64,000 nucleotides of DNA. Origin: Muricoccus harenae (GTDB lineage: Bacteria > Pseudomonadota > Alphaproteobacteria > Acetobacterales > Acetobacteraceae). Under the pieces are notes generated by a model that saw only the letters and a list, made by a program, of their open reading frames with translations, had not been told where the DNA came from and ran no database searches. How positions within the stretch are numbered: position 1 is the stretch's first letter; each line of letters begins with the position of its first letter. Made by a program: the position numbers and the translations under genes. Shown here in pieces: positions 1,155-24,376 of the stretch. The stretch is taken from positions 1 to 64,000 of the forward strand of contig NZ_WWDL01000017.1 of assembly GCF_009848505.1 (NCBI RefSeq), in the 5' to 3' direction.

Positions 1155-3481
1155 TCAGAGGACCGGCTGCGGAAAGCGCTGGGTCTCCAGGAAGTCGAGC
1201 CGTGCCAGCAGGTCGTCGTCGCGGCAGAGCATCAGGCCCCGCAGCCCGGTGCCGGCCGGGCCATCCAGCTCCAGCTCCAGGAAGCGCGTCCCCTCCACCA
1301 CCACGACCGGCATGGCAGTGGCATAGTCCCCCGCCGGCGGATGGGGGATGGCGGCAGCCCCGGCCGGCAGCGAATCCGCGAAGAGCGCCAGGTGGAGGCT
1401 GCTTCCGGCCGCCGAACGCAACTCCAGGTGCAGGCGCAGGAGGCCTACGGTTGCGGGCGGGATCGGCAGGCGCAACCGGGCGGGGCCCCTGGACAGGGGG
1501 CGCCCCAATCCTCGGCCGGCGCCCATCCGGCGCCCTCGCGGACCACCTCCGAAAGCGCCATGGCGCGGTCCGGCAGCATGGCATCCGTCCGCCGCATCGA
1601 GACGCGCATCCCAAGGGGCAGGGCCAGCCGCTCCGCCGGCGGCGTAACCGGAACGCTGCCGAAGCGCTCCACCGCCGAGAGGACCTGCGCCTGCACGGCC
1701 TCCCAGCGTCGGCGATTGGCGCGGCCGGCGACCACCCGCTCGGCCTCCGTCAGCGCCCCCGGCACGAAGAGTAGCCGCTCCACCGCCGCCACCATGTCAG
1801 GCTCGCTCCGCGGCTCGACGAAGACGGCGGCGTCCTCTGCCGACTCCAGCAGCGCGGAATGGCGTGGCACGACCGGCACCTTCCCCCAGGCGAGGCTTTC
1901 CGTCACCGGAAGGCCCCATCCCTCGTAATGGGAATTGTAGATCGTGAAGAGGCAGTCCCGGTACAGCGCCGCCAGACCCCCATCCGAGACATCGTGCAGC
2001 ATCACCACCTGGCGGGACAGGTCCGGGCTGCCCTGCAGCAGGTTCATCGCCGCCTCGGCATGCCAGCCGGCCGCACCGACGCAGACGAGGCGTGGGATGC
2101 GCCCCGTGCCATGCCGCCGCACGAGGGAAAGCCAGGCGCGGAAGACCGTAAGGTGGTCCTTGCGGCTTTCGATCGTCGCGACGAACAGGATGTAGGATTC
2201 GGGCGGGCGGGGTGCGCCAGTGCCCTCCAGCGCCGCCGGATCGGGCGCTGCCTGGCCGCGCGGGTCTCCGTCGAGCCGCACCACCTCCATCGGCAGGTCG
2301 AGCCCCGGAATCAGTGCATCGAGGAAGCGCTGCCCATCCGCCCGGGTGCATTCGGAGTTGCAGAGCACCCCATGCGCATGGACGGCCATGCCGGCGAACC
2401 AGCGCACATAGTCCTGCACCAGCGTCCGCACGCAGTGCTCGGGCATGACCAGCGGCACGCAGTCATGCAGGAAGGGCACGTAGCGCAGGCCGCTGGCCCT
2501 CTGGGCCGCGCGCAGCCCTCGGAAATAGCCGGCGATGCCCCAGGAATTGCCGAGATTCACGAGCATGGCGCCCTCGGCGAAGGCATGGATGGGCGCGGCG
2601 GCAATCCCCTCGGTCACCGCGTCGCGGGCGGCGATCCAATCCGGGTCCTCGGTGCTCGCGCCTGCGCCGGCCAGGGCCAGAAGGGATGCGAGCCGGTCAG
2701 CCGGAACGGTCCGCCAGGCGGCCCGCGCCGCATCGAAGGCGACATAGGACGCCTCGGTCCCCGAGCGCAGCGCGGCACCCACGATGCTCGCTTGCACGCG
2801 CTGGATGCTGGTGAGGGTCCGGCGATGACCGAAATGCAGCAGCAGGTCGGTGATGTCGAAGGCAATGGCCCCGGCCGAGGTGCTGCCTCCCCGCGTGCCG
2901 ACCGCACTGCCGGCACGCAGCATTGCCATGCGAGGGCGGGGAGGTGGCGCCAGCATGCTCGGCCGACGAAGCGCCGACGGCGGCTGCGCCAGCACGGGCA
3001 CGGCCGGGGCGGGCGCCTGGGAAGGGGAAAGAGAAGTTGCCACGACACTTTCGGCCGGGCGGGGCGGCAGTGGCGGTGCGGGCGGGGCGGCGCCCGCCTC
3101 CTCCAGGCGGCGGAGCCCGTCCTCCGCCTCCCGCAGGGCGTCCTCGCCGGTCTGGAGCGTCAGCGCCATGGAATAGGCGCGCGCCGCTTCCTCCCGCCTG
3201 CCCAGCAGCCAGAGCGTATGGCCGCGATGGGTCTGCGGCGCGGATTCTGCCGGGGATTCCGCTGCCGCCCCGGCATAGGCCTCCAGCGCCGCCTCGAGCG
3301 TTCCTGCGGCACGCAGCGCATGGCCACGCCACAGGAGCGCCTGGAATGGCTCGGAGGAGCGTTCCGCCAGCTCGGCATAGTGGCGTGCGGCCTCTTCGGG
3401 CCGCTCTGCATGCCAGAGCCGCGCAGCATTGTCCCGCAGAGCGGAGAGGGGCGGGGTCTCGTCGGGCCAAGCATCCATCAC
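1155..3481 (-). pseudogene. TPR-GT4 glycosyltransferase with C-terminal beta-rich tail, frameshifted near 1503
   Basis: The protein has a TPR-like helical N-terminus (residues 14-125), a Pro-rich linker (130-205) and a GT4 retaining glycosyltransferase domain (from about 206). The GT4 domain includes ILFVATIESRKDHL and the EX7E catalytic signature EGWGLPVTE (Glu520, Glu528). The literal reading frame runs past residue 650 into nonsense and stops at 1445. A second frame continues the protein sensibly (RPLSRGPARLRLPIPP...) to a stop at 1155. One missing base in the G-run of the coding strand (plus-strand 1503-1506) accounts for the switch; repaired length is 775 aa. The tail looks beta-rich and resembles stretches of other proteins in this locus. 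It probably acts in cell-surface polysaccharide assembly. The lesion removes only the tail, so partial activity is possible. Confidence 0.75.
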
Positions 3482-3531
3482 GGAGATGGGTAGCCGGGGA
3501 GGGGCCCCGCCCGAAAGGGGAAAGGGCCGGA

Positions 3532-4599
3532 TCAGGGCTCCAGCCGGCGTCCCGTTTCGGCATCGAACACATGCAGATGCGTCGGCGTCAGGCGAACGGG
3601 CAGGGACTCGCCGGAGAAGGCCCCCTGCAGCCGGGCCGTGACCGCCATCCCGCTGGCCGCGCGCCCATGTACCACCGTCTCCGAGCCCAGCGGCTCGATC
3701 AGCTCCACCGCCAGCGGGAGCGAATCGGGTCCGTCGCCCGTCTCGACATGCTCCGGCCGCAGCCCGAGCGTGAGGGGCATGCCGGCTTCGCCAGGGCGGG
3801 GGCCATCGGCGAAACGGATCAGCGTGCCGTCGCTGAGGCGGGCGGAGGCGTTGCCCTGGTCCAGCGTGGCGGGAATGAAGTTCATGGCGGGGCTGCCGAT
3901 GAAGCCGGCGACATAGGTGTCGGCGGGCCGCTCGAAGATCTCCATAGGTGGCGCCACCTGGGCGGCACGTCCTGCATTCATCACCACCAGCCGGTCGCCA
4001 AGCGTCATCGCCTCCACCTGGTCATGGGTCACGAACAGGGAGGTGACGCCCAGACGCCGCTGCAGCCGCCGGATCTCGGCACGCATCTGCACGCGCAGCT
4101 TGGCATCGAGATTGGAGAGCGGCTCGTCGAAGAGGAACAGCGCCGGCTCGCGCACGATGGCCCGGCCCATGGCGACGCGCTGCCGCTGGCCGCCCGAGAG
4201 CTGCTTCGGCTTGCGGTCCAGCAACGGGCCAATGCCGAGGATCTCAGCCGCGGCCTTCACGCGCTTCTCGATCTCGGCCTTGCCCATGCCGCGTATCTTC
4301 AGCCCGTAGGCCATGTTCCCGAAGACCGACATATGCGGGTAGAGGGCGTAGTTCTGGAACACCATGGCGATGTCGCGGTCGGCGGGCTCGAGTTCGGTCA
4401 CGTCGCGCCCGTTGATGACCACCTGGCCGGAAGTTGCGGTTTCCAGCCCGGCCACGATCCGCAGCAGGGTGGACTTGCCGCAGCCGGAAGCGCCGACGAT
4501 CACCACCAACTCGCCATCGGCGACATCCAGTTCGATGCCGTGGAGCACCTGGGTAGCCCCGAAGGACTTCCGCACGTCGCGGAGGGAAAGAGTGGCCAT
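3532..4599 (-). CDS. ugpC: sn-glycerol-3-phosphate ABC transporter ATP-binding protein UgpC
   Basis: The product is 355 aa, the ATPase of the glycerol-3-phosphate/glycerophosphodiester importer. The Walker A motif GASGCGKST is at 36-44, the LSGGQ signature at 134-138 and Walker B LFLFDEP at 154-160. The C-terminal third is the TOBE/MOI-type regulatory domain of MalK-like ATPases ([24 protein letters not shown]). It is the last gene of ugpB-ugpA-ugpE-ugpC on the minus strand, four bases after ugpE, matching the order of the E. coli system. The substrate assignment rests on gene order and family; other MalK-type importers share the same ATPase. Confidence 0.9.
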
Positions 4600-4603
4600 G
4601 GAT

Positions 4604-6402: not shown

Positions 6403-6451
6403 GGCGCCCTTCGTGAGACCCGGCGGGTTAGTCCCGCCGGGTGCCATCCTG

Positions 6452-7801: not shown

Positions 7802-7900
7802 GTGTGGGTGAATCCTTCCCTCATATGGAGCCCCTGGCGGAGCGGTGGCCCGGGGATTACGCGCCCCGTGTTGCAGATAGACTACAATCTGATGACCGGT

Positions 7901-7929: not shown

Positions 7930-7977
7930 AGCCGGGCATCAACCTGACGTTCATCTGATTGCCTGCATCCTTGGCCA

Positions 7978-8580
7978 ATGGAAAGCGACTCGCCCTTCCT
8001 TCTCCTTGGCGTGGCCTCGCGCGCGGTTCCGGGTCTGCCCTCAGTCAGCGCGGGGCGCCTCACCGGGCTAATGGCGGGACGGATGCGGCGCCGGCTTCCG
8101 GCGGCCGCATTGCGGCTGCCCCAGCCCCTGGGCTTCGGCGGCCTCGCGGAGGTCCGGTCCTGGCTGATGGCGCGGGAGGCCCGGTTGACCGCCGCTCTGC
8201 GCGTCCTGGCTGGGTGCCGCGAGGTCGGGCTGGAATTGCAGGAGGATGCGCCCCGCCATGCCGCCTGGCTTCGCGCACGGGACCGTGGGCTTGCGGGCGG
8301 CGCCTCCTCCAGTCCCGCACGCGCCGCCCGACGTGCCATGGTCGCGCGGCGAGTGGAGGCGATCCTGGCAAGCGAGGCCCGTGCCGCCGTGCTCCCCGAT
8401 CCGGTGCGGGAGGAGCAGCCCGGAAGCTGGGCCGTGGCCGTTCCGGAGGCTGCCGTGGCGCGCCTGCGCGCCGCACTGGAGATGGAGGCGAGGAAGCTCG
8501 CCGGCACCGGCCTCACCCTGCATCTCCGCGCTACCGACGAGAGCACCGAACTTGCCCGCGCAGTTCTGCAGGACGGCTGA
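7978..8580 (+). CDS. Hypothetical protein, possibly distantly GvpL/GvpF-like
   Basis: This is a 200-aa Ala/Arg-rich protein, divergent from ugpB. No strong ribosome binding site precedes ATG 7978, but an early start is needed to keep the [11 protein letters not shown] strand. The overall pattern recalls gas-vesicle accessory proteins GvpF/L. It has a leading beta strand, a [17 protein letters not shown] segment, [16 protein letters not shown], a charged helix, then a strand-helix-strand ending ([17 protein letters not shown]...LTLHLR). The hallmark C-terminal GPWPPYSF is missing and no other gvp gene is nearby. It is treated as hypothetical; the resemblance is an inference from pattern only. 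Confidence 0.5.
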
Positions 8581-8801: not shown

Positions 8802-10010
<1,209 letters not shown>

Positions 10011-10023
10011 GCCGCCGCTGGCC

Positions 10024-10049: not shown

Positions 10050-11439
10050 TCATGCGCCCGGGCCGGCCGCCTCGGGTGCCACGGGGCGGCCTGCCTCATC
10101 CAGCAGAAGCTTCGCCGTGGCGATCCATTCGCCGGTTTCCGCGACGGAGAGGCCAGCCTGCCGGCATGCGTCCTCGGCCAGGCGAGGCAGCACGGAAATC
10201 AGCGCCTGCATCATCGCGGCGTCGCGTTCGTCGGTGATCGACGCAAGGAACTCCTGCAGCTCCGGTAGGGTGATCCGCAGGAACGGGCCGAACTTGTCGC
10301 TGGCCCGGCCCAGCCAGTCCCGAAACATATGCGGCCAGCCAGGCGCCTGCCGGAACTCCAGCCGCGGCTCGCCATCCTTGCTCGCCAGCTTTAGCCGCAG
10401 CGCCGCCCAGCGTGCCGGACCGGCGGCGAGGCTGGCCACGGTCAGCTCGAGGTGGCGGTAGGACTCGCCTGGCAGATACTGGTGCAGGCGCACCGCCTCA
10501 TAGCGCGCCGCGGGGCGCGGCTTCCGCAAGGCCGCGGGGGCGGGCGACGCCGAGGGTCGCTTCGCCGCCACGCCGGTGGGTGGTCGCTGCATCGGCTCCG
10601 ACGCCTTCGCGGCCGGCGCGCCGGGTGGCGGCGGCACCGCAAGGTTTGGTGGCGCGTAACGCGGGGTCGCCGGGGTGGGGCCCTTTGGGGTTGCCGGCGC
10701 TGGCGGGGCAGATTCCTGGGCCGCAATCACCCGCTTTACGGTCTGATCTGTCGTGTCGGGCGGCACCCCAAGGTCCGGTGCGGCGCTCGCAGGTGGAGAG
10801 ACGGTTGGGTCCGTGGCGGAGGTCGGAACCATCGGCGGAAGGGCCTCGCGCGTCGCACCGCCTGCGGCGGCAACTCGAATCGGAGCGCTCGGCTCCGGCG
10901 GCACGGGCTCGCGGTGGAAAGGGAAGCACGGCCGGCTGTGCCGGCCGTGGCGTGGCTGCCCTTCCAGTCGGTGACGTGATGCCAATGTCATGCCGATCGG
11001 CCGATAGCCTGAGGGACACCACCTCGACGGCGGCCTCCTCGGGACCCGCGCGTAAGCCGATCACGAGGCAACCCTGCCCGTCCGGAAGCGGTGCCAGGGG
11101 GAGGGTCAGCTCGCCCCCGTCCTCCGGAAGTACGCGCCAGCCCGTCTCCGCCGCCGCGCCGCCACGCTGCTCCAGCGCAGCCAGGTCGGACGGCGCATGA
11201 TCGGCCGGGTAAAGCCAGGCCGAAACCACAGCGCCGGACCCGGTCGGCTCGGCGAAGGCGATCCGTACTCGGTCCAGCCCTGGGCCGTGCAATCCGGGCA
11301 GCATCAGAACCGCCTGCTCTCCCGCATGGGCGCGCAGCAGCGGTCGAGGGGACTCCTCGCCCAGTGCCACCAGATCCATCTGGCCCGCCAGGGGCCGTGC
11401 CGCCGCCCAGGTCGCGGAGGGCAGGGCAAGCGGAACCAT
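10050..11439 (-). pseudogene. Unknown polysaccharide-locus protein, frameshifted near 10918 (possibly the C-terminal part of the 11515 gene)
   Basis: Two frames together give one protein of about 462 aa. The first (from 11439) is beta-rich (RPLAGQMDLVALGE, LLRAHAGEQAVLMLPGLHG). The second holds a long Pro/Ala/Thr-rich linker and a compact C-terminus (YLPGESYRHLELTVASL, APGWPHMFRDWLGRASDKFG, ITLPELQEFLASI). Deleting one base of the AAA at plus-strand 10918-10920 joins them smoothly (VLPFHREPVPPEP). No start codon with a ribosome binding site precedes 11439, and coding-like sequence continues in frame up to a TAA at 11515-11517. That suggests this and the next gene were once one open frame of about 760 codons. 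I do not recognise a characterised family; from memory it recalls uncharacterised Acetobacteraceae proteins filed as DUF6212, which is unverified. Confidence 0.55.
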
Positions 11440-11514
11440 GCGAGGCGGTGCGAGCCCGACATCCCCCGGCGCCCAGAAGGCGGGCGCGAGGTATCGGTCC
11501 CCGGGCTCCCCGGC

Positions 11515-12330
11515 TTAAGCCCGCAGCGCCAGCGGGTGGTCGCCGGAGGCGCCGGCCCAGCGCGTATCGCGCGACAGCCCGGGCAGGCCGCTGCCCTCAG
11601 GCAGGATTTCGAGCACGGCCGTCTCCCGTAGCGGGCCGGTCGGGGTGGGCAGGTCGAGCGTCAGCCAACCCGTGGCGAGCGCGGCTGCAGGCCCCGCCCA
11701 GGCGCCGGCCACGCGGTCCGTCTCGCCACCCCGTAGCCGGAAGTGCAGCTGTCCGCCGCCCTGGCCGGGGCCGGTGACATGCACAGCCAGCGCGGCCAGT
11801 GCGGCGAGACCGGTCCCGAGGATATGCCGCGCCGTGCCCGTCACCGGCGAGCCATTCCCGATCTCGCCCGAGAGGACGAGGCGTGGCGCGACCGGCGGAC
11901 GATGCGCCATGACACGGGACACACCGGCCATGGCCTCCCGCGTTTCCTCCAACTCCTGCCGTGCTGCCACCAGCGCCCGTCCCGCGGTGGCCTCGCGTGC
12001 CTGGGTGGCGCTCATCTCCCCCGCCAGGATCGGGACCAACCCGGCCAGGGCGGCCTGGCCCGTTGCGGCCAGCAGGAAGGGCGGCGCAGGCAGGCCGGAT
12101 ACCTCGGTCCACCAGCGCGTGATGGGCAGGACGCGCAGCCTTTCGGTGGCAACCAGGGCGATCATGCCCATGGGCGGCGTCTCCAGCGCCACCGAGGCGG
12201 CCGGCTCCGGCGCACGGGTTCCGGCCGGATGGAGCAGGATCGCACCGCCGCGGCTGGAGGCGAGCCAGACCTCCAGCGCCGGGGAGGCGAGGGGCGAAGG
12301 GTCCATCACCCCCTCGGCCACCAGCAGCAT
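11515..12330 (-). CDS. Hypothetical protein with central coiled coil, glycosyltransferase-linked
   Basis: The literal product is 271 aa, unknown. Residues 1-110 look like an alpha/beta domain (LLVAEGVMDPSPLASPALEVWL, MIALVATERLRVLPITRWW). A helical segment follows (ATAGRALVAARQELEETREA), then a beta-rich C-terminal half (RHILGTGLAALAALAVHV, LHFRLRGGETDRVAGAW). It lies just after the tandem GT2-GT4 gene on the same strand. The TAA at 11517 is followed in the same frame by coding-like sequence (DRYLAPAFWAPGDVGLAP), so the stop may be premature. The frame also remains protein-like upstream of ATG 12330, so the true start is uncertain. A helix between two beta domains recalls the product at 18399-19142. 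Confidence 0.5.
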   Translation of the reverse strand: MLLVAEGVMDPSPLASPALEVWLASSRGGAILLHPAGTRAPEPAASVALETPPMGMIALVATERLRVLPITRWWTEVSGLPAPPFLLAATGQAALAGLVPILAGEMSATQAREATAGRALVAARQELEETREAMAGVSRVMAHRPPVAPRLVLSGEIGNGSPVTGTARHILGTGLAALAALAVHVTGPGQGGGQLHFRLRGGETDRVAGAWAGPAAALATGWLTLDLPTPTGPLRETAVLEILPEGSGLPGLSRDTRWAGASGDHPLALRA

Positions 12331-12379
12331 TGGACCACCGCCGGCCAGTCGGAAAGATGGACGGGGTCGGCGCGCAGGG

Positions 12380-14989
12380 TCACGGAGAAGGAACCTTGTC
12401 CAGTCGGTCCAGGAGGGCCGTCATGTGCCGCTCCCAGCCAGGGAGGGCGACGGCGTGTGTGGCGGCGGCGCGGGCGGCCGCCCGCAGTGCCGCGCGGTCC
12501 GCCGAAAGAGCGGCAAGGCGCTCGGCGAAGCCCGAGGCGACCGCCGGGTCGAGCTGGGTCGGGATCAGGAAGCCGTCGGCCCCGTCCGACACCATCTCGT
12601 GCACCGCCCCCGTCCGGGTCGCCACCGGCACGCAGCCCATGCGCTGCGCCTCCAAGATTGGTGAGGGGCGATCCCTCGAAGCGCGAGGGCAGTACGAGCA
12701 CGTCCGCCCAGGCGAGAAGCGCATCCAGCGCGGCGGGGTCCCTGGGCGGCGGCTCGATTGAAAGGCCCGGGATGTCCCCCAGACCCCCTCCCAACACCGC
12801 GCGGCCGGCGGCGCGCCATTGGGTCCCGGGCGTCAGCACCACGATGTCGCGCAGCCGGTCTAATCCCTTTTGCGGATCCAGCCGGCCAAGGAACAGCGCG
12901 CGCAGCGGCCCGCTGCGCCGCGCCCGGTCGGCGATCGCGGCCTCAGCCGCCCCCGGCGCCGTCGCATGGCCGGGGCCATTCGGTATCACGAACACCTTTG
13001 ATTCCGGCAGCCCCTGGGCAATGCACCAGTCGCGCAAACCTTCGGAGACAACGGCGACCGCATCATAGGTGGACTCCTGCGCCAGCACCGCATGGGGATG
13101 ACCCAGCGGCGCGCCGGACGCATCCCGCTCCACCAGATGCAGCCCGGCCACGACAAAGGTCCCGAGGCTGCGGAGCGCGCCCGCGATGGCATGGGCGCCC
13201 TGGGAATGCGTCGCCAGCACCGCCCGCATCGGCGCGGCCTGCCCCAGCGCGTCGCGCGTCTCCGCGACGCCTGGCAGCGGAGCGCCCAGATGGGCGGCCA
13301 GTGGGTCCTGCCCCTCGATTCCGCCGGGCTGGGGGAACTGCACCGTCTCGAAGGCGGCAACGGCGTCGGGCGGCAGCTGCGCGCGGTCCGCGCCGGTCAC
13401 GAAGAGATGCGGCCGCCAGCCCCGGCGGCGCAGGACCCGGGCGTAATTCGCCAGCACCCGCTCCACCCCGCCCTGCTCGAAGATCGGGACCATCAACCCG
13501 ATGTCGCGGCCCTCGGCAGGTGCCTGCCAGGGCAACACCGCGCCCGCGCCGATCAGCTCCTGGTATCCGTCATGGGCCCTTGCCCGGGGGCGGCGCCAGT
13601 CGCCGCGCCATTCGCCATGGTCGGGGTGCCGCGTGGCGAAGGCCTCCGCCAGGGACGCATATTCAGCCTTCGCCTCCTCCAGCACGGGCGGTGCGGCATG
13701 GGAGATTCCAGCGGGCAGGGTGACGCGAAGGGTGGCCGCGCGCCGCGTCACGGCCTCGAAGGCTGAGCCGACCGCGGCCTCCTCCTGCCATGCGGCGCCC
13801 CGCAGGACGAGGAGGACGGCTTCGCCCGGGATGGGCCCGCCACCTCTTTCGAGCGCAAGGGTTTCCCCGATCCCCGCCGAGAGCGTCACGGCCACGGCAT
13901 CCGTGTGGCGCAGCAGGATCTCGGACTGCCAGAGCATGTTGTGCAGCAGCTTGCCGGCCCGCAGCGCCTCCAGCGCTGTGTCGGAGGCAAAGACGTGGAA
14001 GGGCGGCGCATGCACCGCCTGCGGATGCCGGCTGGCCTCCACCAGCAGCCGGCGCGCCGCGGCGCGTGGCAAGGGCGGGCGCGCCGGGCGGAGCGGGTCC
14101 ACCACCGGTTCCGCCAACGTTCCGCCGGATCGGTGCAGAAGGAAGCGCGGCACCTCGGCCGCCTCCAGCGCCAGGAGCCGGCGCGGGTCCAGCGGCGGCC
14201 GGAGCCGGTCCCGCATGCCGGAGAGGATCGCCGCCCGGCGTCGCTCCGCTTCCAGCCGCATGCCGCCGGCCCGGCGCCGGTATCCGAAGCCGGCCATGGG
14301 GAGGTGACGTCCGCGAAAACCGGCGCCGGCAGCGCGCAGCCAGAAGTCCCAATCCTCGAAGCCGTGGCGCATCGTTTCATCGAAGCGGATCCCAGCCTCG
14401 AACACCGCGCGGGAGATGAGGCTACCGGCGTCGCTCGTATTCTCCAGGAGGTGCAGGAACAGGCTGTGCTCCCCGGCCGCGGAGGCGTGCTCTGGAATGC
14501 CGAAGAAGTCGAAGTCCGGGTAGATCCAACCTGTCTCCCGCCCGGATTCCTCCAGCAGCTCGGCGGCGCGGTCGATCAGCCAGGGACCCAGCCGGTTGTC
14601 CGAGTCCAGCAGGAACACGGCGCGGCAGAAGGGCCAGGCGCGCAGGGCGAAGTCGATGCCGGTGTTGCGGGCGGCGGAAAGCCCCCCATTCGCACGCCGC
14701 AGCAGGTGCACCTGCCCGGGGTTCCCGCGGGCGAGGCGAAGCGCTGTCTTCCGGGGTTCCCGCGGGCGAGGCGAAGCGCTGTCTCCCGGGTTTCCGGCAT
14801 GGGGCAGCCGTCGTCCACCACCAGCGCGGCAATGCGGCGGCGCCCGCGCTGCGCAAGGACGGATTCGACCGCCTCGGCCAGAAGGGCGGGCTGGCGATGG
14901 CTGGGGATGACCACCACGATCTCGGGAGGGAGCTCGGCGCCACGCCACTGGTCGGTTGCATCCTGTTTCAGCCCCGTCGGCGCCTGCAT
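12380..14989 (-). pseudogene. Bifunctional GT2-GT4 glycosyltransferase, broken by a 35-bp tandem duplication and a +1 indel
   Basis: The repaired length is 857 aa. The N-terminal GT2 domain starts MQAPTGLKQD at 14989 with PPEIVVVIPSHRQPALLAEA, then the nucleotide-binding DDG and the DSDN (DXD-type) motif. After a middle region a GT4 domain begins at DIGLMVPIFEQGGVERVLANY. It ends with the EX7E box EGSPLTILE and a normal C-terminus at 12380. Two lesions separate these parts. A 35-bp tandem duplication (14716-14784) shifts frame after the ETALRLARGNPG stretch; removing one copy restores LARGNPGQVHLLRRANGGLS. One extra base near 12658 separates the first from the second catalytic Glu of the EX7E box. 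As sequenced it cannot make the full enzyme. It presumably added two sugars in exopolysaccharide assembly. Confidence 0.75.
14716..14784. repeat. 35-bp-period tandem duplication inside the GT2 domain
   Basis: The 34-base block at 14716-14749 recurs exactly at 14751-14784, with one spacer base. The period of 35 is not a multiple of three, so the extra copy shifts the reading frame of the glycosyltransferase. With one copy removed the GT2 frame reads through. The sequence itself is ordinary coding DNA, not a mobile-element end. Confidence 0.9.
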
Positions 14990-15038: not shown

Positions 15039-16184
15039 TCACCCGACCCCGAACCCGCCAAGCGGAGGTGCCAGCAGCCGTCTGAGCCTGGCGAGGTAGC
15101 GCGCGGCCATGTCCTCTGCCGTGCCCGACGCCGCGAGGCGCAGGGCGAATTCCACCCGCGCCAGGACCGCATGGCCGCCCCCCACCGCCTCCGCCAGGGC
15201 ATCGGCCATCTCTGCCGCATCATCGCCCCGCACCAGGGAACCGGCCGCCGGGCCGAGCGCCTCCAGCGCCTCCGGGCTGGCCACCACTGGCAGCCCCCAG
15301 GATGCGGCCTCGAGGAAGGCGAGCGGCGCCCCCTCCAGCCGCGAGGGCAGGAGGAGCGCATCCACCGCCGCCAGCAGCTCCGCCGGCCGCGAATGACGCC
15401 CGAGCAGCCGCAGCGGATGCCCGTCCGGCGCCGCGTTCCGCAGCATCTCAGCGAGTGAGCCGGTGCCCGCGCTTGTGATCACTCCGTTGGACCGCCGGGC
15501 GAAGGCTTCGGCCAGGAGGGGCAGGCGGTCTGCGCCCTTGGCCTCGTCGAGCCGCCCAAGGAAGAGCGCCACCGGCGTCTCCCTGGAAAGGCCGAGCCGG
15601 GTCCGCAGGTCTTGGCGCGCCGTGTCCCGATCCAGTGCGGGCCGCGGATCGACACCATTGGGTATGGTGGCCACGCGGCCGGGAGGCAGGTTCAGATAGC
15701 GCGCGAACCGCTCCGCCGTGGGGGCTGAGGCAGCCACCCAGTCGGCCCGGATCGCCGCCGCGGCCGCCAGGGCCTGCTCGTCCAGCCCGGGCGGGCGCTC
15801 CGCCCCATGTGGGGCGAGATGGGCGACGATCAGGGCCGGGATGCCGGCCTCCGCCAGCGCCTGCATCGCCCCGCCGCCCCGGTCCGGCCAGGGCAGGGGG
15901 AGTAGCGCCGCATCCGGCCGTGCAGCCGAGAGAGCCGTCCGGGTCGCGCCCGCCTGGGCCTCGCGCGCTGTCTCCACCAGCCCGCGCCGCCAGGTGACCG
16001 GCAGGTCCCGCACGCTCCGGCCGGGCGCCGCCACGAGCGGGTACAGGGCCGTGCCGGCCGCCACCGTCACCGCCACCCCCGCCGCCTCGGCCGCGGCGCA
16101 GAGCCGCAGAGTATGGGCTTCGGCGCCGCCGAAGCGGTCACCAGGCAACAGCACCAGCAGCCGCCGCATCCGCAGGATCGTCAC
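15039..16184 (-). CDS. GT4 family glycosyltransferase
   Basis: This 381-aa product is intact, unlike its neighbours. The N-terminus RRLLVLLPGDRFGGAEAHTLRLC is the GT4 acceptor-side start. The nucleotide-sugar half has IPNGVDPRPALDRD, VALFLGRLDEAKGADRLPLL and the EX7E signature EGAPLAFLE. The frame opens at GTG 16184 (MTILRMRRLL), with ATG 16169 as an alternative; neither has a strong ribosome binding site. It is divergent from galE and upstream of the broken GT2-GT4 gene on the same strand. It likely transfers a hexose during polysaccharide repeat-unit assembly. Confidence 0.85.
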   Translation of the reverse strand: MTILRMRRLLVLLPGDRFGGAEAHTLRLCAAAEAAGVAVTVAAGTALYPLVAAPGRSVRDLPVTWRRGLVETAREAQAGATRTALSAARPDAALLPLPWPDRGGGAMQALAEAGIPALIVAHLAPHGAERPPGLDEQALAAAAAIRADWVAASAPTAERFARYLNLPPGRVATIPNGVDPRPALDRDTARQDLRTRLGLSRETPVALFLGRLDEAKGADRLPLLAEAFARRSNGVITSAGTGSLAEMLRNAAPDGHPLRLLGRHSRPAELLAAVDALLLPSRLEGAPLAFLEAASWGLPVVASPEALEALGPAAGSLVRGDDAAEMADALAEAVGGGHAVLARVEFALRLAASGTAEDMAARYLARLRRLLAPPLGGFGVG

Positions 16185-16274
16185 AGGTTAAGAACACCCC
16201 TCGCCAAGCACCCTATGATGCGGGCGACCCCCCCTCTACAAAGGGGGACCCGACTTGGACAGCTGGGAGCACGG

Positions 16275-17285
16275 ATGGGACGATACCTTGTAACGGGCGG
16301 AGCCGGCTATGTCGGCAGCCATGTGGTCCTTGCCCTGCTCGACCGCGGCGATGATGTGGTGGTGTTCGACAATCTGCGCCAAGGCCATCGCGCCGCGGTG
16401 CAGCCGGGGGCAAAGCTTGTCGTCGGCGACCTTTCGGACCGCGCGATGGTCCGCGAGGTGCTCGCCGGCTGGCGCTTCGACGGCATCCTGCATTTCGCGG
16501 CCCTTTCCCTGGTCGGCGAGAGCATGCGCGAGCCGCTGCGCTATATCGCGGAGAATGTCGGCAACACCCTCTGGCTCGCCGAGGAAGCGGTGAAGGCGGG
16601 GGTGATGCGCTTCGTCCTCTCCTCCACGGCCGCCCTGTTCGGCCTGCCGCAGCGCATTCCCATCGACGAGGAGGAGCGCAAGGACCCCGTCTCGGCCTAT
16701 GGCGAGTCCAAGCTGATGGCCGAGCGTGGACTGGAATGGGCTGATCGCGCTCTCGGGCTCCGCTCTGCCGCGCTGCGCTACTTCAACGCCGCCGGAGCTG
16801 ATCCGGGCGGACGGCTGGGCGAGGACCACAATCCCGAGACGCATCTGATTCCGAACGCGATCAACGCCGTGCTCGGCCTCGGTCCGCCGCTGACCGTCTT
16901 CGGCACCGATTACGAGACGCCCGACGGCACCGCGATCCGCGACTACGTGCATGTGGCCGACCTGGCGGATGCGCATCTGCGCGTGCTGGACCGGCTGAAG
17001 GACGGCCCCTCCTGCCGCTACAATGTCGGCAGCGGCACCGGCGCCTCAGTGCTCGAGGTGATCGCGGCGGTGGAACGCGCGGCCGGGCGCCCGGTGCCAC
17101 ATGTCCTGGGCCCGAGGCGAGAAGGGGATCCGGCTGTGCTGGTCGCTTCCAACGACCTGCTGCGGCGGGAGACGGGCTGGACACCGCGTCTTGGCGCGCT
17201 GGATGACATCGTGGGCACCGCCTATGCTTGGCGGGCGCGGCACCCGAAGGGCTATCTCGGCCCTGTCGCGGAGGTTGCGGCCTGA
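16275..17285 (+). CDS. galE: UDP-glucose 4-epimerase
   Basis: The product is 336 aa, a short-chain dehydrogenase-type epimerase interconverting UDP-glucose and UDP-galactose, which supplies precursors to the surrounding glycosyltransferases. The NAD-binding Rossmann motif GGAGYVG is at 8-14. The catalytic Ser/Thr lies in SSTAALFG (116-123) and the Tyr142-x3-Lys146 pair in YGESK. The family markers RYFNAAGADP and DYVHVADLADAH are present. GGGAG at 16265-16269 supports ATG 16275 over upstream in-frame starts. The stop overlaps the next gene's start. Confidence 0.93.
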   Translation: MGRYLVTGGAGYVGSHVVLALLDRGDDVVVFDNLRQGHRAAVQPGAKLVVGDLSDRAMVREVLAGWRFDGILHFAALSLVGESMREPLRYIAENVGNTLWLAEEAVKAGVMRFVLSSTAALFGLPQRIPIDEEERKDPVSAYGESKLMAERGLEWADRALGLRSAALRYFNAAGADPGGRLGEDHNPETHLIPNAINAVLGLGPPLTVFGTDYETPDGTAIRDYVHVADLADAHLRVLDRLKDGPSCRYNVGSGTGASVLEVIAAVERAAGRPVPHVLGPRREGDPAVLVASNDLLRRETGWTPRLGALDDIVGTAYAWRARHPKGYLGPVAEVAA

Positions 17286-18389
17286 AGCGGATCGTTTTCA
17301 CCGGCGACGTGCTCCGCCCGGGCGAGACTGTATTCCGCCCGGCGCAGACCGAGAACATCCGCTGGTTCCACCGCCTCGTGCGTGCCCAGGTCGCGGCGGC
17401 GACACGCTGCCCCGTCAGTGCCGTGACATGGGGCGAGGGCATCGACACGGAACGCGTCTACGAACTCTGGGGCGCAGAGAAGAGCTGGCGCGGCTGGGCC
17501 GCGATCTTCGACGCCGGCTTCGCGCCCGACGGCGTGGTGGTGGCGCTGGAGCGCGCCTTCGCCGATGCGGTGGTGGTGGGCTTCGAGCTTGCGGAAGCGA
17601 TGAAGCGCATCCTCAGCCTGCTCGGGATTCCCTTCATCGATTTCAGCGTCCATCCGGTCCGCTTCCTCCAGGACATCTTCTTCGCGGTGCAGACGAATGA
17701 CGCGGCCGTGTTAGGCAATGCTGCCCGACCATACGGACAGCGGCGCATTTCTCGGCCCCGCGGGGTTGCTCGCTGCCACGGCGTTGAAGTTCAGGCCGGA
17801 GCTGCGTCCGCGCGGCGAGAACTTGGTGGTGGGGCAGACGCGGATCGACCGCGCACTGGTGCGCGGAGGGCGGGTGGTGGACCTGTCCGACTTCGGGCCG
17901 GCGCTGCGCGAAGCTGTAGGCGATGGAGGCGTGACCTTCAAGCCGCATCCTTATGCGCATAGCGACTTCGGCCTGCTGTCCACCGGCATCTCGCTGCGGA
18001 AGATGAACCTCACCTATGAGAACGTCTATGCACTGATGGCCTCGAAGGGGATCCGACGCGTGGTGGGGGTCAGTTCCTCGGTGCTGACCGAGGCGCGGTA
18101 TTTCGGGCTGGAGACGCGAACCCTCTACGATTCGCCCTTCGACCTTCCCGAGCGGCGGTCCGATGCAGTGCCGGGCCAGCATCTCAGCATCGTGGATGAA
18201 TGGGGCGATGCGGATTTCTGGCGCCGCATCCTCGCGCCGCTGGTTTCGGTCACGCGCCCTGACGGGCAGCGCTTCCGCCGGGCGCCGAATGCGCTGCGGA
18301 CCTCGCTGAAGAACTTCTGGGGCTACAACGAGCTGACCACGGACTACCAGGTGGCGATCGCGCGGCCCGAGCGGCGCCCGGCGATCTAG
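17282..18389 (+). pseudogene. KPHP-type polysaccharide transferase, frameshifted at 17714
   Basis: Two frames make one 368-aa protein. The first starts LKRIVFTGDVLRPGETVF, apparently at a CTG (17282) whose TGA part is the galE stop, with GGAGG eight bases upstream. The second resumes at MLPDHTDSGAFLGPAG. Deleting one G of the GG at 17714-17715 joins them (AAVLAMLPDH). The C-terminal half has TFKPHPYAHSDFG and VVGVSSSVLTEARYFG. That KPHP plus SS pattern is seen in bacterial sialyl-, Kdo- and capsule-type GT-B transferases. It may act on capsule or lipid-linked glycan, but the specificity is unknown. The extra base should abolish the C-terminal donor-binding half. Confidence 0.65.
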
Positions 18390-18398
18390 AGCCGGAGA

Positions 18399-19142
18399 TT
18401 ACAGGCTTCGGCCGCCGATCCGCTCCGCCACCACGCGCCGCACGCCCACGCCCAGCCGGCGCGGGTCGCGGCCGCGCGGGTCGCCGATGCTCGGCCCGAG
18501 GATGACGAGCCCCAGATTGACGCCCGCCACCTCGTGCCCTTCCCAGAGCGCGGCGAGGGTTGCGCGGCTGCCATCCACCCACACTGGGGTGAGGCGCAGC
18601 GGCTCCCCATCCGCCAGGATGCTCACCGTATCCAGCTGGGACGGCTCGTCGAAGGGAAAGAGGAGGTCCAGTTCGAGCGCCACGGCGCCGAGGCCGAGAT
18701 CGGGCACGATGATGGAGGCGGCCGGCGCAAGCCCGCTCCAGCGCCAGCTCTGGTCGCCGTGCCGCTCGGCCGGGTGCCAGCCGAAGCCGGTGAAGTCGGG
18801 ATCGGCCGCCTTCACCTCGTGGCGCGCGGCAGGCAGGGGCGGCGGCGCGCCGCGGTCGCCCGGCATCTGGCGGAGCGGATCGATCTGCAGCCAGTCACCC
18901 CGGCTGCGGCGGGTCTCGGTCGCGGCCTGCCAGGCAGCCTCGGCCCGGGCCTCGATGCGCCCGACCTCGTCAATCAGACGTTCCATCGCTCCCCGCATGG
19001 ACGGGGGCAGCTGGGACAGCTCGCTCCCCATGCGCTCGCGCAATGCCATGCTGCCGATCCGGGCGGCGGCGGCATCCAAGGCTTCGTCCGCCTCGCGCAT
19101 GGCGGTGAGGTCCAGTCCGTCGCTGGGGGTCTCGAGGGGCAT
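18399..19142 (-). CDS. Hypothetical beta-rich protein with helical N-terminus, in the polysaccharide locus
   Basis: The product is 247 aa from ATG 19142 (MPLETPSDGLDLTAMREADE), with GGAG six bases upstream. Residues 1-95 are helical and charged (READEALDAAAARIGSMALR, AMERLIDEVGRIEARAEAAW). The rest is beta-rich: DPDFTGFGWHPAERHGDQSW, WSGLAPAASIIVPDLGLGAV, ALELDLLFPFDEPSQLDTVS. It ends with a basic segment. The frame is open further upstream to 19265, and a single-base change near 19190 would fuse it to the tandem glycosyltransferase. It may therefore be that enzyme's C-terminal tail, as in the 1155-3481 gene. No characterised family was recognised. Confidence 0.6.
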   Translation of the reverse strand: MPLETPSDGLDLTAMREADEALDAAAARIGSMALRERMGSELSQLPPSMRGAMERLIDEVGRIEARAEAAWQAATETRRSRGDWLQIDPLRQMPGDRGAPPPLPAARHEVKAADPDFTGFGWHPAERHGDQSWRWSGLAPAASIIVPDLGLGAVALELDLLFPFDEPSQLDTVSILADGEPLRLTPVWVDGSRATLAALWEGHEVAGVNLGLVILGPSIGDPRGRDPRRLGVGVRRVVAERIGGRSL

Positions 19143-20828
19143 GGAACGCTCCAGCTGGTCTGGCGGCACGCGGCGCCATGGCGGCGGCGCTGGCGTTGCG
19201 GGCGATGTCGGCGAGATGCCGGAGGGCGGCCTGCGCGGCCGGCTGGCCGAAGCGGGAACGCCCAAAGCGGAAGGCGCCCTCGCCGATCCGGCGGCGCCAG
19301 TGCGGGTCCCGGATCAGCCGGCCCAGATGGGCGACATACTCGGCGCGGGACCTCGCGACCAGATAGGCCTGACCCTCTCCGCCATGGAGGCCGTAGGCGC
19401 CCTCCTCGGTGAGCACGGAGAGAAGGCCGCGGCAGAGATATTCCACTGTCTTGATCTTCACCCCGCCGCCGTAGAACACGGGATTGATTCCGACATCTGC
19501 GGCGTCGAGGAAGCCGGCCAGATCCTCCACCTCCCCATGCAGCCGGACGCCCGAGCCCGAGGGGATGGTGACGGCATCACAGACCCGGCCTGCAATGTGC
19601 AGTTCCGCGCCCAGGTCGCCGACGGCGAGCCAGACCTGCGCCAGGAACCAGCGCAGCCCGTCCCGGTTCATCGGGCTGTCGCCGCCGACGAAGACGATGC
19701 GGCGCACGGCGCGCGTGGTGTCGGCCGGGGTGAGGTCCGGCAAGGTATGCGGCAGGAGCAGTGAACGGCCGGGCAGGGCGTCCCGCAGCAGCGCGTGTTC
19801 CGTCTCCTGAATGGCGAGAACCTGCTCCAAGCCATCCATTATTCCGAGCTCCTCCAGGAGGCTGATTCGGAGGAAGTGCTCGCGCCCGAAATGCTCGAAG
19901 TTCCGCGACCGCAGCGACATGACGTCATGCGTGTCCAGCACGCGCAGCGGCGGGGCAGGGCGGGCGTGGCGCAGGTAGGAAAGGCGGATGTACTCGATCA
20001 CCACGGCCTCGTAGGAAGCCTCCGCCAGCAGCGCCTCATAGGCCACGAAATGGGCGGCATCAAATGCTGCCGTTCGAAGGAGGTCAGCCGTGCATGGGGC
20101 GGAACCAGGCCTGCGACACGGCCTCCTGGACCGCCCATGGAAGCGAGCAGCCGCCCACGTCGCCCAAGGATGCGGCTGGCCGCGGCATCATCCGCCGGAC
20201 CGGCCTTGCCGAGGAACAGCACGTCCACATCCATCTCGCCGCGCGCCACCCGCAGCATGGCGGCGATCCTTGCCTGGTTGCCCAGGCTCTCGCGCCAGAA
20301 GGGGATGTCCGTCACCAGCAACGCGCGGGGCCGTGCGATCAGCCGCTCCAGCGCCTCCCGGAAGCGGAAGGGGGCGAACTGGCGGCGCACCGTGCGGGCA
20401 TAGCGCGCGGCGAGGGACGCGCTTTCCCGCGCCACCTCCTGCCGGAAGCGCGGCTCCGCCGCGCAACGCTGCGCCAGGGCGGCGGTGGCCACCGCGTCCG
20501 GCGCGGCATGGAAGGCGGCATGGGCGCCAAGGCCGCGGAAGGCCTCGGCCGTGCCGATAACCGGGCGGCCATGAGCCAGCGCCTCCACCGTCTTGATCTT
20601 CAGCCCGGTGCCGCCCTCATGCGGGTTCACGCCCAAGTCCAGCGCCAGGTAGAAATCCTTCGGCTCCCCGACGCCGACCGGGACGATCCCCGGCCGTGCC
20701 GGCCCGGCGTAGCGCGTGGCGCCGTCCGCGACATGCAGCACGGCGCCAGCCTCAGCGAGGGCCTCCGTATCCAGCGCCGCGATGAAATGGCCCAGAGCAT
20801 GGCCGTTCAGCGGGTTGCCGCTGCCCAG

Positions 20829-20831
20829 CTA
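20829..20831 (-). other. In-frame amber stop in tandem glycosyltransferase copy A
   Basis: TAG interrupts a frame that is protein-like on both sides (LRMG, then LGSGNPLNGHALGHFIAALD). GT4 proteins usually have a GYxGS-type stretch here, so a Tyr codon turned into TAG is the simplest explanation. Confidence 0.7.
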
Positions 20832-21095
20832 GCCCATCCGCAGGCCCTCATGCGGGGCGACTGGCATCGGCTCCACGGCCGGCATGAAGCCGAGGGTTAC
20901 GACGGGGCTAGTCGTCGCCTCCTCCAGCACCTGGCGCTCGTCGTCCTGGATCGCCAGCACGAGGTCGGCGCGGTCCAGCCCACGTCCCTCCTGCTCGGGC
21001 GTCGTGTGGAAGAAGCCCACCGGCAGGCCCAGGGCCTTCAGCCGCAGATGGCGATCCGCGAACACGTCATGTGTGTCGAGCACCCGCAGTGTGCC

Positions 21096-21104
21096 GGGGG
21101 GGGG
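21096..21104. repeat. G9 homopolymer tract in glycosyltransferase coding sequence
   Basis: Nine consecutive G (C9 on the coding strand) sit within the tandem glycosyltransferase. Eight would keep frame (ELSPPGTLRVLD); nine puts it out. It is a contingency-type slippery tract and also a common site of sequencing error. Confidence 0.85.
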
Positions 21105-21605
21105 ACAGTTCCAGCGCCCGGCTGAGGAAGACATATTCCACCAGCACGAGGTCGTAGCGCTTCTCCGCCGCGAGAGCGGCAATGGCGTCCTCGAGATCGG
21201 GCGGGAACCAGTCGTCGATGGCGAAGGTTTCGCCGAGGCTCGGCGCTTCCTGCGTCCGATCATAGGGATGAGGTAGAGCCGGTTCCAGGCGGCGCGCATC
21301 GCCTCTAGCGCCTCCTCCGGGACCGCCTCGCGCTGGATGAAGGCAAAGTCCACGCGATGCCCGAAGCCACGAAGTGCGGCGAGGAGGGTGTGGATGCGCT
21401 GACGGTTTCCGGCATCCTGCGGATGCGTGGGCGTCGGCGATATGACGAGGCAGTGCATTCGTCCTGGCATTCGGGTCGGGGGGCAGCATAGAGGGGGGGG
21501 AAGGTAGCGCGGTCAAGGCGGGCCGGGCAGGGCGGCGCCCCAGAGGCGCGCCGGCGGCATGGGGCGGACCGTAACGAAGGGCCCGCCGCGAGAATTCGGC
21601 AGCTT

Positions 21606-23105
21606 ATGTATTTCGAGCTCGGACAGGCCCTGCAGGCGGAGATCGACTGCGCGGGCGACATCGGTCCGGACCAGGGGGCGGTGTTCGGCTGGGTCCGGCA
21701 CCCTGCGGGCCAGACGCCGCTCCTGCATGTGGAGAAGAGCGGGGGCACGCGGGTCTCGACAATCCTGCTCGCGCTCCATCCCCGCACGGATATCCACGCG
21801 CCCCGGGGGACCGCGGTCTCCGGCTTCACCCTGATCCATGACATCCCGCCCGGCGCGGCCGGCCGCCTGCTGGTGGTCGACGCCGGAGGAGCGGAGGTCG
21901 CCCTCGATCTGCTCGCCTATGGCCCGCCGGCGGAGCCGGAGGCTGCGATCCTCGGCCGCGACCCCGCGGCCAACTTCCAGTTCCTGCAGGCCGCCGCGCG
22001 GGATCCTGCGCGGATCCGGGCCCTGTCGGCCGGGGATGTGCCCCTGGGCCTGTTCGGCGGCTGGCTTGACCGGTTGCCGCGCTACACCGGCGCTCCCGGT
22101 CCCTCCCTGGCCTTCCGCCGTCTCTCCATCGCCTGCACCGGCGACGGCGAGGTGGCGATCTCCGGCGATTTCGGCGCGCCTGGCGAAGCGTCGGAGGTGA
22201 CTGCCTGCGCCCTGGTCCGGCTGGGCGATGCCCCGCCCATGGTCGCGCCGCTTGCGCAGGAGAGGTCCGCGCCGCTCGGGACCGGCTTTGCCCTGTGCGG
22301 CCAGCTCGCACTTCCGCCATGTGCGACGGTGGAGCTGGTGGTGCAGCTTCGGCGTGGTGACCAAGCCTGGTGGTTCCGGGCCGAGGCGGAGGCGGTGGCG
22401 CTGCCCGCCTTCCTTAGGACCCTCACCCTGGAGAGAATCGAGTTGCCCGGCAGCGACGCTGGGGTGCTGCATGGATGGGTGCGCGAAGTGCTGCGGGACC
22501 GGAGCGACCGGCTGCGCGGGCGGCTCTCCGGGCTGGGACTCCCGCTGGCGGGCCCTCGGGATCCAGGGTTTGGCGGCCGCACGGAGCCGGCTGGCGGGAC
22601 GGCGCTGCTCTTCGGCCTGCATGACGACTATGCCGCCCGCCTCCTCGCCCTCCTCGCGCCGCAGATGGAGGCGCAGTTTCGGCGCATCGTGATCAGCGGC
22701 GCCGCCGCCGGCCGCGCAGCCGCGGCGCTGCTGCGGCGGGGACGCGTCGAGGTGCTGGTTGAGGAGGAGGCCGAGGGCGCGCTGGCAGCGGCCTCGGCCG
22801 GTGCTGCCTCGGTCACCCCGATCGATACGCCAGCCCTGGTCGACATCGCGATCGAGGGCAGCATGGCACGGGTGGCCGGGCACGCGCTGCCCGCCGACCG
22901 GATGCCGATCCTGTCCAGCCTGCACGAGGCGGCGGGCACGGGCGGGATGGAAGCAACGCTACGCCGCGTCGCCGCCATCATGTCGGGCGCCGATCCGGGG
23001 GCCCTGCCGCTGCCGGGCCAGCGCCCGGACGCCATCGGCGGCCTCGTCGCGGAACATCTGCGCGGGCTATGGGACATGGTGGCGGGCACGGAGGCACGCC
23101 GATGA
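21606..23105 (+). CDS. Hypothetical multi-domain protein of the polysaccharide locus
   Basis: The product is 499 aa with no recognised family. Residues 1-290 are beta-rich, with two segments that look alike in layout: GAVFGWVRHPAGQTPLLHVE and EVAISGDFGAPGEASEVTAC. A third (VLHGWVREVLRDRSDRLRGR) follows. Residues about 315-440 look alpha/beta (TALLFGLHDDYAARLLALLA, QFRRIVISG, RVEVLVEEE). The C-terminus is helical. There is no signal peptide or membrane segment. Its TGA stop overlaps the ATG of the following glycosyltransferase (ATGA), so the two are co-translated and presumably work together. The start at 21606 lacks a good ribosome binding site. It could be an accessory carbohydrate-binding or scaffold protein, which is inference only. 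Confidence 0.7.
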   Translation: MYFELGQALQAEIDCAGDIGPDQGAVFGWVRHPAGQTPLLHVEKSGGTRVSTILLALHPRTDIHAPRGTAVSGFTLIHDIPPGAAGRLLVVDAGGAEVALDLLAYGPPAEPEAAILGRDPAANFQFLQAAARDPARIRALSAGDVPLGLFGGWLDRLPRYTGAPGPSLAFRRLSIACTGDGEVAISGDFGAPGEASEVTACALVRLGDAPPMVAPLAQERSAPLGTGFALCGQLALPPCATVELVVQLRRGDQAWWFRAEAEAVALPAFLRTLTLERIELPGSDAGVLHGWVREVLRDRSDRLRGRLSGLGLPLAGPRDPGFGGRTEPAGGTALLFGLHDDYAARLLALLAPQMEAQFRRIVISGAAAGRAAAALLRRGRVEVLVEEEAEGALAAASAGAASVTPIDTPALVDIAIEGSMARVAGHALPADRMPILSSLHEAAGTGGMEATLRRVAAIMSGADPGALPLPGQRPDAIGGLVAEHLRGLWDMVAGTEARR

Positions 23106-24376
23106 GCGGCCCTTCCGTCTGTATCGTCTCCCATGCCCATCCCGACTTCTCCAAGGGCGGCGGGGAGATGTCGGCCTATCGCCAGTTCCAGACCCTGGCC
23201 GGGGAGGGCTGGGAGGCCAGTTTCGTTGCGGCCATCGAACTGCCGAACGGCCAGTCCCCCGCGGATCGCGGCGAGACGGTCGCCGGCTACGGGGAGAGGG
23301 AATATCTCTTCACCGTCAACGGCATGGAGGAGGACCGGCTCTGGTGGCGCAACCCGGAGGAGCGGCGTGCCCTGTTGCGCCTGCTCGTCGGTTTGAAGGC
23401 CGATGTGTACCACTTCCACCATTAGTGGCGCATTGGGCTGGACCTGATTGCGGAGCTGGCGGAGGCCCGGCCGGATGCGCGGCTGGTGCTGACGGCGCAT
23501 GAGATGCTCGCCATCTGCAGCCACCACGGACAGATGATCCGCACCCGCTCCCGCGAACTGTGCAGGAAGGAGACGGCGCAGCGCTGCCTTACCTGCTTTC
23601 CGGACCAGACTCTGGAGCGGCTGCGGCTGCGCAAGGCGATGATGCTGGCCGGCCTGCGGCACTTCCACCATTTCGTCTATCCAAGCCATTTCATTGCCGA
23701 GCGCTACCGCGCCTGGGGCCTTTCGCCCGACCGTGCGACGGTGCTGGAGAACTATCTCGGCGACGACCTGCTGGCGGTGCCCCGGCAAAGCCGTGACAGC
23801 GAGGGCCTCGCCGGGCATTTCGCATTCTTCGGCCAGCCCACCGAGTTCAAGGGGCTCGACACCCTCGTTCCCGCCTTCGCTACGGCGCTGCGCGAGAAGC
23901 CGGTGCTGAGTCTTGTCATCCATGGCACCACGGCGGAGGAGGCGCTGCGCTTCTTCCCCGCTCTGGAGAAGCCCGTCGCCGCGGGCGCCGACCGGCTGAT
24001 CTTCGCAGCGCGCTACGACTCGCATGACGTGCTGCCGCTGATGGCCTCGGCCGGCTGGGTGGTGATGCCCTCCGTCTGGTGGGAAAATTCGCCCGTGGTG
24101 ATCCAGGAGGCGCGCCGCGCCGGCACGCCGCTCATTGTCTCTGGCATCGGCGGCATGGCGGAGAAGGTGCAGGACGGTGTCGACGGGCTGCATGTGCGGG
24201 CGGGATCGGTGCCGGACCTGACGCGCGCGCTGCTGCAGGCCCCGGTTCCCGAGACCCATGCGCGGCTTTCCGCCAGCCTGCGGGACGTGATCGGGCGCGA
24301 GGAATTCGTCGCCGCCCTCGGCGCCATCTATGCGCGCCCAGGGACCTCCGCGCCGCGCATCATCCGCGCTGCTTGA
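23102..24376 (+). pseudogene. GT4 glycosyltransferase with in-frame amber stop at 23423
   Basis: One continuous frame of 424 codons has a single internal TAG at 23423-23425. Before it comes SVCIVSHAHPDFSKGGGEMS and KADVYHFHH; after it WRIGLDLIAELAEARPDARL and the donor half. The donor half contains GHFAFFGQPTEFKGLDTLVP, SVWWENSPVVIQEARRAGTP with the EX7E pair, and EKVQDGVDGLHVRAGS. FHH is normally followed by an aromatic residue, so TAC/TAT or TGG to TAG is likely. ATG 23102 overlaps the stop of the upstream hypothetical gene. The truncated product (107 aa) would lack the catalytic half. A re-start at a downstream ATG such as 23486 would lack the acceptor half. Confidence 0.75.

What the first reader, a model, noticed from the sequence alone, without database searches (positions are those of the whole stretch)
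1155..24376. Clustered inactivation of a polysaccharide glycosyltransferase locus
About twelve lesions were seen in the glycosyltransferases and companion genes: near 1503, 10918, 11515, 12658, 14751, 17714, 19190 (uncertain), 20075, 20829, 21096, 21265 and 23423. ugpBAEC, pcaF, galE, the AlgI/J pair and one GT4 gene between them are clean. In the remaining 40 kb only comM is broken. This looks like selective loss of a surface polysaccharide (or a mutated lab strain) or a locally poor assembly. Three stop codons and a 35-bp duplication argue against pure homopolymer error.
Basis: partly seen in the sequence, partly recalled or inferred. Interest (0 to 1): 0.75.

Follow-up and report, generated by a model that had tools for sequence, protein, structure and literature searches.

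The report
Recently broken sugar-chain gene cluster
A bacterium related to Roseomonas carries a cluster of sugar-chain building genes in which six genes are disrupted although several of its relatives keep them whole, which looks like recent loss of an optional surface sugar structure, but only the raw sequencing reads can rule out a local assembly fault.

Summary
The observation largely holds. Eleven of the twelve listed lesions are frame-disrupting differences inside single open reading frames of same-genus relatives; 19190 is a gene boundary. The cluster is local: one test against the relative G005 gave 8 events in 17.4 kb here and 8 raw (4 after inspection) in 289 kb elsewhere. The two broken genes searched have no second copy. 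Most broken genes belong to an accessory module found whole in 7 of 14 same-genus genomes; 3 others keep its neighbours but lack it in the regions fetched. One broken gene without a Pfam match is a homologue of the Kdo transferase KrkA (GT140), catalytic motifs kept in relatives. Not shown: that lesions single out glycosyltransferases (uniform scatter: P = 0.42 and 0.13), that constraint was relaxed (N/S excess P = 0.11), or that reads support the lesions. Best reading: recent, real decay of an optional glycan locus (0.6); local assembly error stays open (0.3). Surface-polysaccharide loci broken in place are known elsewhere, so this is a new example of a known kind.

The parts
1155..3481 (-). 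GT4 glycosyltransferase gene with weak TPR matches, frame broken near 1503
   Evidence: Glycos_transf_1 over Pfam's cut-off, TPR below it; single ORFs of 748-803 aa in G005, G001, G009, G010 span the break
   Evidence: continuous ORFs, 89-95% identical to G005; names not tested by family search
   Evidence: single ORF, 93-95% identical in 10 of 10 relatives
10050..12381 (-). DUF6212 protein gene, frame broken between about 10646 and 10921, nonsense codon at 11515
   Evidence: PF19717 in the G005 protein and in the own genome with one TAA inside; single ORFs of relatives span both
12383..14948 (-). GT2-GT4 two-domain glycosyltransferase gene, frame broken near 12658 and by a period-35 tandem duplication near 14751
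15039..16184 (-). GT4 glycosyltransferase, intact, found in 10 of 10 relatives (51-73% identity)
16275..17285 (+). galE, intact
   Evidence: 85-91% identical in 10 of 10 relatives; Epimerase family on the G007 orthologue
17288..18389 (+). GT140 (KrkA-like, Kdo-transferase type) gene, frame broken near 17713, between the general-base motif (17579) and the nucleophile motif (17832)
   Evidence: intact G005 protein matches KrkA chains, E 1.8e-25; motifs; frame break
18399..19265 (-). gene of unknown family, intact; its overlap with the next gene accounts for '19190'
19162..21470 (-). large GT4-type glycosyltransferase gene with three frame breaks (near 20061, 21097, 21267) and a nonsense codon at 20829
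21606..23105 (+). gene of unknown family, intact
23102..24376 (+). GT4 glycosyltransferase gene with a nonsense codon at 23423
24547..25275 (+). GDSL hydrolase, intact
25295..27854 (-). AlgX-domain (SGNH) and MBOAT pair of O-acetylation type, intact
   Evidence: PF16822 and PF03062

Best explanation
The block is an accessory glycan-synthesis locus of a Roseomonas/Pararoseomonas-group bacterium that has recently lost function by ordinary pseudogenisation. Six genes (GT4 with weak TPR matches, DUF6212, GT2-GT4, GT140/KrkA-like, large GT4, second GT4) carry 11 frame-disrupting lesions. Once the pathway was dispensable or costly, further lesions in it were neutral and accumulated, while neighbouring genes with other roles stayed under selection. 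Shown: lesions in the assembly, intact copies in relatives, local clustering, no second copy of the two broken genes searched. Inferred: that the lesions are in the cell and not only in the assembly, that the product is a surface glycan, and that loss of the pathway came first. What made it dispensable is not known; a Wzx/Wzy-type locus with open frames elsewhere in the genome is one candidate.
For: Single relative ORFs span 11 of 12 sites. Same test: 8 events in 17.4 kb here; 18 control stretches of the same genome gave 7 raw events in 243 kb, 3 kept on inspection, all nonsense, no internal frameshift; adjoining contig 0 in 14.5 kb. No other copy of the large GT4 or the GT140 gene in the genome. 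The six-gene module (GT2-GT4, GT140, large GT4, second GT4 and two genes of unknown family) is missing together from the fetched regions of G001, G009 and G010, which retain pcaF, GT4, galE, GDSL, AlgX and AlgI types; 8 of 11 lesions fall in it against a 42% length share (P = 0.043). Own-unique changes at otherwise invariant sites are 193 against 264 for G005 in five broken genes and 79 against 149 in five intact ones (P = 0.057), the direction expected for recent relaxation.
Against: No reads were available. Which genes are hit is compatible with uniform scatter (P = 0.42 and 0.13). Own-branch N/S in four broken genes (61/107) is not significantly above the G005 branch (49/126; P = 0.11); the other two broken genes were not assessed there. 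The own-unique excess is uneven: ratios to G005 of 1.26 and 1.14 in two broken genes but 0.39 in the broken DUF6212 gene, lower than in any intact one. Two module genes are intact. Several lesions sit among other nearby base changes (8 of 193 own-unique sites lie within 6 nt of a lesion, as do 78 of 5076 invariant sites, but the nonsense changes themselves are among the 8), which a poor local consensus would also give.
Confidence: 0.6

Rival explanations
1. Local assembly or consensus error: the first 24 kb of contig C38 were assembled from too few or mixed reads, so indels, stops and a tandem duplication were introduced irrespective of gene function.
For: The window starts at a contig end in a GC-rich low-complexity stretch that adjoins contig C50 with almost no gap by the G005 map. 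Uniform scatter over the genes is not rejected. Little sign of long relaxed selection. Reference-free frame scans list more candidates per kb in this genome outside the window than in G005 (57 in 366 kb against 33 in 381 kb of coding; strict form 21 in 768 kb against 6 in 408 kb); most were not inspected.
Against: The other side of the contig break is clean (0 in 14.5 kb). Local G+C at lesions is 0.67-0.76; 121 of 800 control 500-bp windows reach 0.73, and the 18 of 20 control stretches put to the homology test left no internal frameshift. That test does not bear out a genome-wide excess: 7 raw events in this genome, 9 raw in G005. No other cluster like this one stood out among 40 stretches scanned without references, but that scan sees only 4 of the 11 locus lesions.
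Confidence: 0.3
2. Selected loss of the glycan in culture or under phage attack: inactivation itself was favoured, as proposed for capsule loci of Klebsiella. This is a cause for the best explanation, so its odds lie within that one.
For: Phage pressure and growth in rich medium are named as selecting for capsule loss, and many Klebsiella isolates hold several capsule pseudogenes (PMC8259999, passages read).
Against: One lesion suffices for loss; 11 in six genes need later drift or a benefit of removing each step. No phenotype or passage history is known.
Confidence: 0.15
3. Reversible on/off switching (phase variation) through a homopolymer and a tandem duplication.
For: One lesion lies at a run of nine G, another is a period-35 tandem duplication.
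Against: None of the seven relatives aligned has the duplication or so long a run there (one, G008, has seven G), and the other nine lesions, three of them nonsense codons, are not of a switching kind.
Confidence: 0.03

Closest known systems
Capsule-locus pseudogenisation in Klebsiella pneumoniae (PLoS Biol 2021, PMC8259999; passages read)
   Same: Inactivating lesions in glycosyltransferase and other glycan genes, several per genome in many isolates, while relatives keep the locus.
   Different: There across about 4,000 genomes and following the pathway order, the first steps hit most; here one genome, no initiating transferase found in the locus, no order testable.
GT140 Kdo transferase KrkA of E. 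coli K13 (J Biol Chem 2026, PMC12887879; abstract and passages read)
   Same: The G005 form of the 17.3-18.4 kb gene aligns over 259 residues (E 1.8e-25) and keeps the QXXXD nucleophile, the HP motif and the general-base Glu position.
   Different: KrkA also carries ribosyltransferase modules, whereas the 332-aa G005 protein gave no Pfam family; in this genome the gene is broken between the motif groups; substrate unknown.
Reduced version of the same locus in G001, G009, G010
   Same: Lacks the module, keeps neighbours.
   Different: Missing as a block (lost or never gained), not by point lesions.

Membership tests
Pseudogene cluster (recent gene loss) | Frame-disrupting lesions where close relatives have open frames | tested here: met
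   11 of 12 sites
Pseudogene cluster (recent gene loss) | Excess over the genome's own background | tested here: met
   8 in 17.4 kb against 4 inspected (8 raw) in 289 kb
Pseudogene cluster (recent gene loss) | Relaxed constraint on the lineage | tested here: inconclusive
   N/S 61/107 against 49/126 in four of six broken genes, P = 0.11
Pseudogene cluster (recent gene loss) | Lesions present in the reads | not testable with these tools
   no reads held
Wzx/Wzy- or ABC-dependent polysaccharide locus | Initiating transferase, flippase and polymerase, or capsule exporter, in the locus | tested here: not met
   none among the 15 proteins of 0.2-28 kb scanned; ugpBAEC and pcaF not scanned. Such genes are on contig C60
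GT140 (KrkA-type Kdo transferase) | Sequence similarity over the catalytic module | tested here: met
   E 1.8e-25, query residues 63-321, on the intact G005 protein only
GT140 (KrkA-type Kdo transferase) | QXXXD nucleophile, HP motif, general-base Glu | tested here: met
   present in 7 of 7 relatives' proteins; the two pieces of the own gene carry the first and the latter two
GT140 (KrkA-type Kdo transferase) | Kdo transfer activity | not testable with these tools
   no assay

The most novel reading that the evidence does not exclude
A glycan switch seen in mid-course: an acquired, lower-GC Wzx/Wzy locus (contig C60, 62% GC over its first 20 kb) has taken over, and the ancestral GT140-containing glycan locus of the genus is decaying in place. 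C60-like genes occur as multi-gene matches in G003, G004 and G011, for which the module gave only short scattered DNA matches, and more weakly in G014, which has the module.
Probability: 0.2. Interest if true: 0.5.

Novelty: new member of a known kind. Interest (0 to 1): 0.35.

Why it matters
If real, it is an example of how an optional surface glycan is lost outside the well-studied pathogens, caught early enough that the broken genes are still readable, and it ties a gene without a Pfam family to the new GT140 Kdo-transferase family in the Roseomonas group. If it is an assembly fault, it warns that a genome held as its species' representative carries a 24 kb stretch of false pseudogenes.

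Tried and rejected
Lesion at 19190: rejected, boundary of two overlapping genes. Sequence poor across the genome: not borne out on 243 kb of controls, although frame scans list more candidates in this genome than in G005. Contig-end effect: adjoining contig clean. High G+C as sole cause: not supported. Redundant second copy: none for the two genes searched; the DUF6212 family also has one place in the genome.

A first blastx event list was too noisy, because opposite-strand ORFs were picked as genes; it was replaced by gene choice with a codon model and DNA alignment. The reference-free frame scan is weak both ways: its strict form finds 4 of the 11 locus lesions and comM, wrongly lists 19159, and lists 21 candidates in 768 kb outside the window, at least two of them one place seen twice in overlapping stretches. 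Of the six candidates in the multi-candidate stretches L131 and L175, four were checked against ORF lists and are ordinary genes; the others were not inspected.

Of the 7 raw control events, 4 were dropped after looking at the alignments (two at start codons, two in gapped misalignments); the raw events of the reverse test on G005 (9 in the controls) were not inspected. L126 and L131 had no G005 counterpart and were left out of the 18 stretches tested; L131 against G012 matched only 2 genes. In the N/S test the DUF6212 gene and the 1155-3481 gene gave no usable rows.

Paper searches: Roseomonas with pseudogenes and exopolysaccharide (one review of Acidobacteria, listing only), Roseomonas with genome, polysaccharide, glycosyltransferase and capsule (none), DUF6212 (none). 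No earlier report was found by these in that library.

Full report
Source. The window is the first 64 kb of contig C38 of a 5.3 Mb draft in 126 contigs. The closest named hits of its galE are Roseomonas and Pararoseomonas species; the best, Roseomonas sp. SXEYE001, lies on a contig of the same length as the G005 contig used here. The window's own record is not named.

The observation. ORFs of same-genus genomes were compared with the window. Relatives have single open frames across 11 of the 12 reported sites; the twelfth, 19190, is a gene boundary. The eleven comprise seven frame breaks, three nonsense codons and a tandem duplication of period 35. They fall in six genes: a GT4 with weak TPR matches (one), a DUF6212 protein (two), GT2-GT4 (two), a KrkA-like gene (one), a large GT4 (four) and a second GT4 (one).

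Background. I fetched 20 control stretches of 20 kb from the same genome, found G005 counterparts for 18, and ran one test on them and on the window. In 229 genes and 243,085 aligned nt it gave 7 raw events; inspection left 3, all nonsense. The two G005 pieces facing the rest of the window (31,667 aligned nt) gave comM only, and 14,528 nt on the adjoining contig gave none. The two G005 pieces facing the locus gave 8 events in 17,422 nt. Three more sites (1503, 10918, 11515) were not covered by that test and rest. Eight against four inspected events gives P = 4e-8; the raw count elsewhere is eight. The window was picked for its lesions and events were counted singly, so the P is too strong. The reverse test, G005 against this genome, gave 9 raw events in 243,848 nt, so outside the locus the two genomes look alike, although frame scans without references list more candidates in this genome.

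Selectivity. With 11 lesions scattered over the 16 genes by length, at least as much sequence stays untouched in 42% of trials and six or fewer genes are hit in 13%. The spared genes are therefore no proof of selection. A grouping made without the lesions does slightly better: the six-gene module missing from the fetched regions of G001, G009 and G010 holds 8 of 11 lesions on 42% of the length (P = 0.043). Four further same-genus genomes (G003, G004, G011, G013) gave only short scattered DNA matches and were not examined by protein.

Age. On codons where outgroups agree, four broken genes show 61 nonsynonymous and 107 synonymous changes on the own branch, against 49 and 126 on the G005 branch (P = 0.11); four intact genes show 24/51 and 30/70. 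Sites unique to the own genome number 193 against 264 for G005 in five broken genes and 79 against 149 in five intact ones (P = 0.057), but the broken genes differ among themselves, from 0.39 to 1.26. If the loss is real it is recent.

What the locus makes. Pfam finds GT2 and GT4 domains, DUF6212, a GDSL hydrolase, an AlgX-type SGNH protein and an MBOAT acyltransferase, with an epimerase (galE) in the G007 orthologue. The 17.3-18.4 kb gene has no Pfam or NCBIfam match in its G005 form, but that form matches KrkA, founding member of GT140 and a retaining Kdo transferase (PMC12887879, abstract and passages). The QXXXD, HP and general-base positions are kept in 7 of 7 relatives, and in this genome the frame break falls between the general base and the nucleophile. 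No polymerase, flippase, initiating transferase or exporter was found among the 15 proteins scanned, so a surface glycan is an inference; glycoprotein modification is possible.

A possible replacement. The first 20 kb of contig C60 (62% GC) hold twelve consecutive ORFs on one strand; among the ten scanned are an initiating transferase, a Wzz-kinase, a flippase, a Wzy-like protein (below Pfam's cut-off), four GT4 proteins and a pyruvyl transferase. G005, G007 and G012 gave only short matches; G003, G004 and G011 gave multi-gene matches and G014 weaker ones. One of these four has the intact module, against six of the ten other same-genus genomes; no test was run and the species are not independent.

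Verdict. The clustering is real in the assembly and most simply explained as recent loss of an optional glycan. Local misassembly stays at about 0.3 because reads were not available and the placement of lesions does not exclude it.

Noticed in passing
39789-41305: comM-like gene split into a ChlI N-terminal piece and an Mg_chelatase piece; G005 has one 505-aa frame.
   Followed up: partly
L163 1658-19824 (contig C60): Wzx/Wzy-type glycan locus with open frames, 62% GC over the 20 kb, with only short matches in G005, G007 and G012.
   Followed up: partly
L115 about 9910, L118 about 8689, L132 about 10659: Three single nonsense codons in control genes, each at a tryptophan codon of G005.
   Followed up: no
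7978-8580: Small protein with a GvpL/GvpF gas-vesicle match (E 8.5e-8) between the transporter genes and pcaF.
   Followed up: no
47718-50429: Intact GT2 protein with a weak glycosyl hydrolase family 17 match, possibly a beta-glucan synthase.
   Followed up: no
1-100: Contig C38 starts in GC-rich low-complexity sequence; by the G005 map the neighbour is contig C50 with almost no gap.
   Followed up: yes
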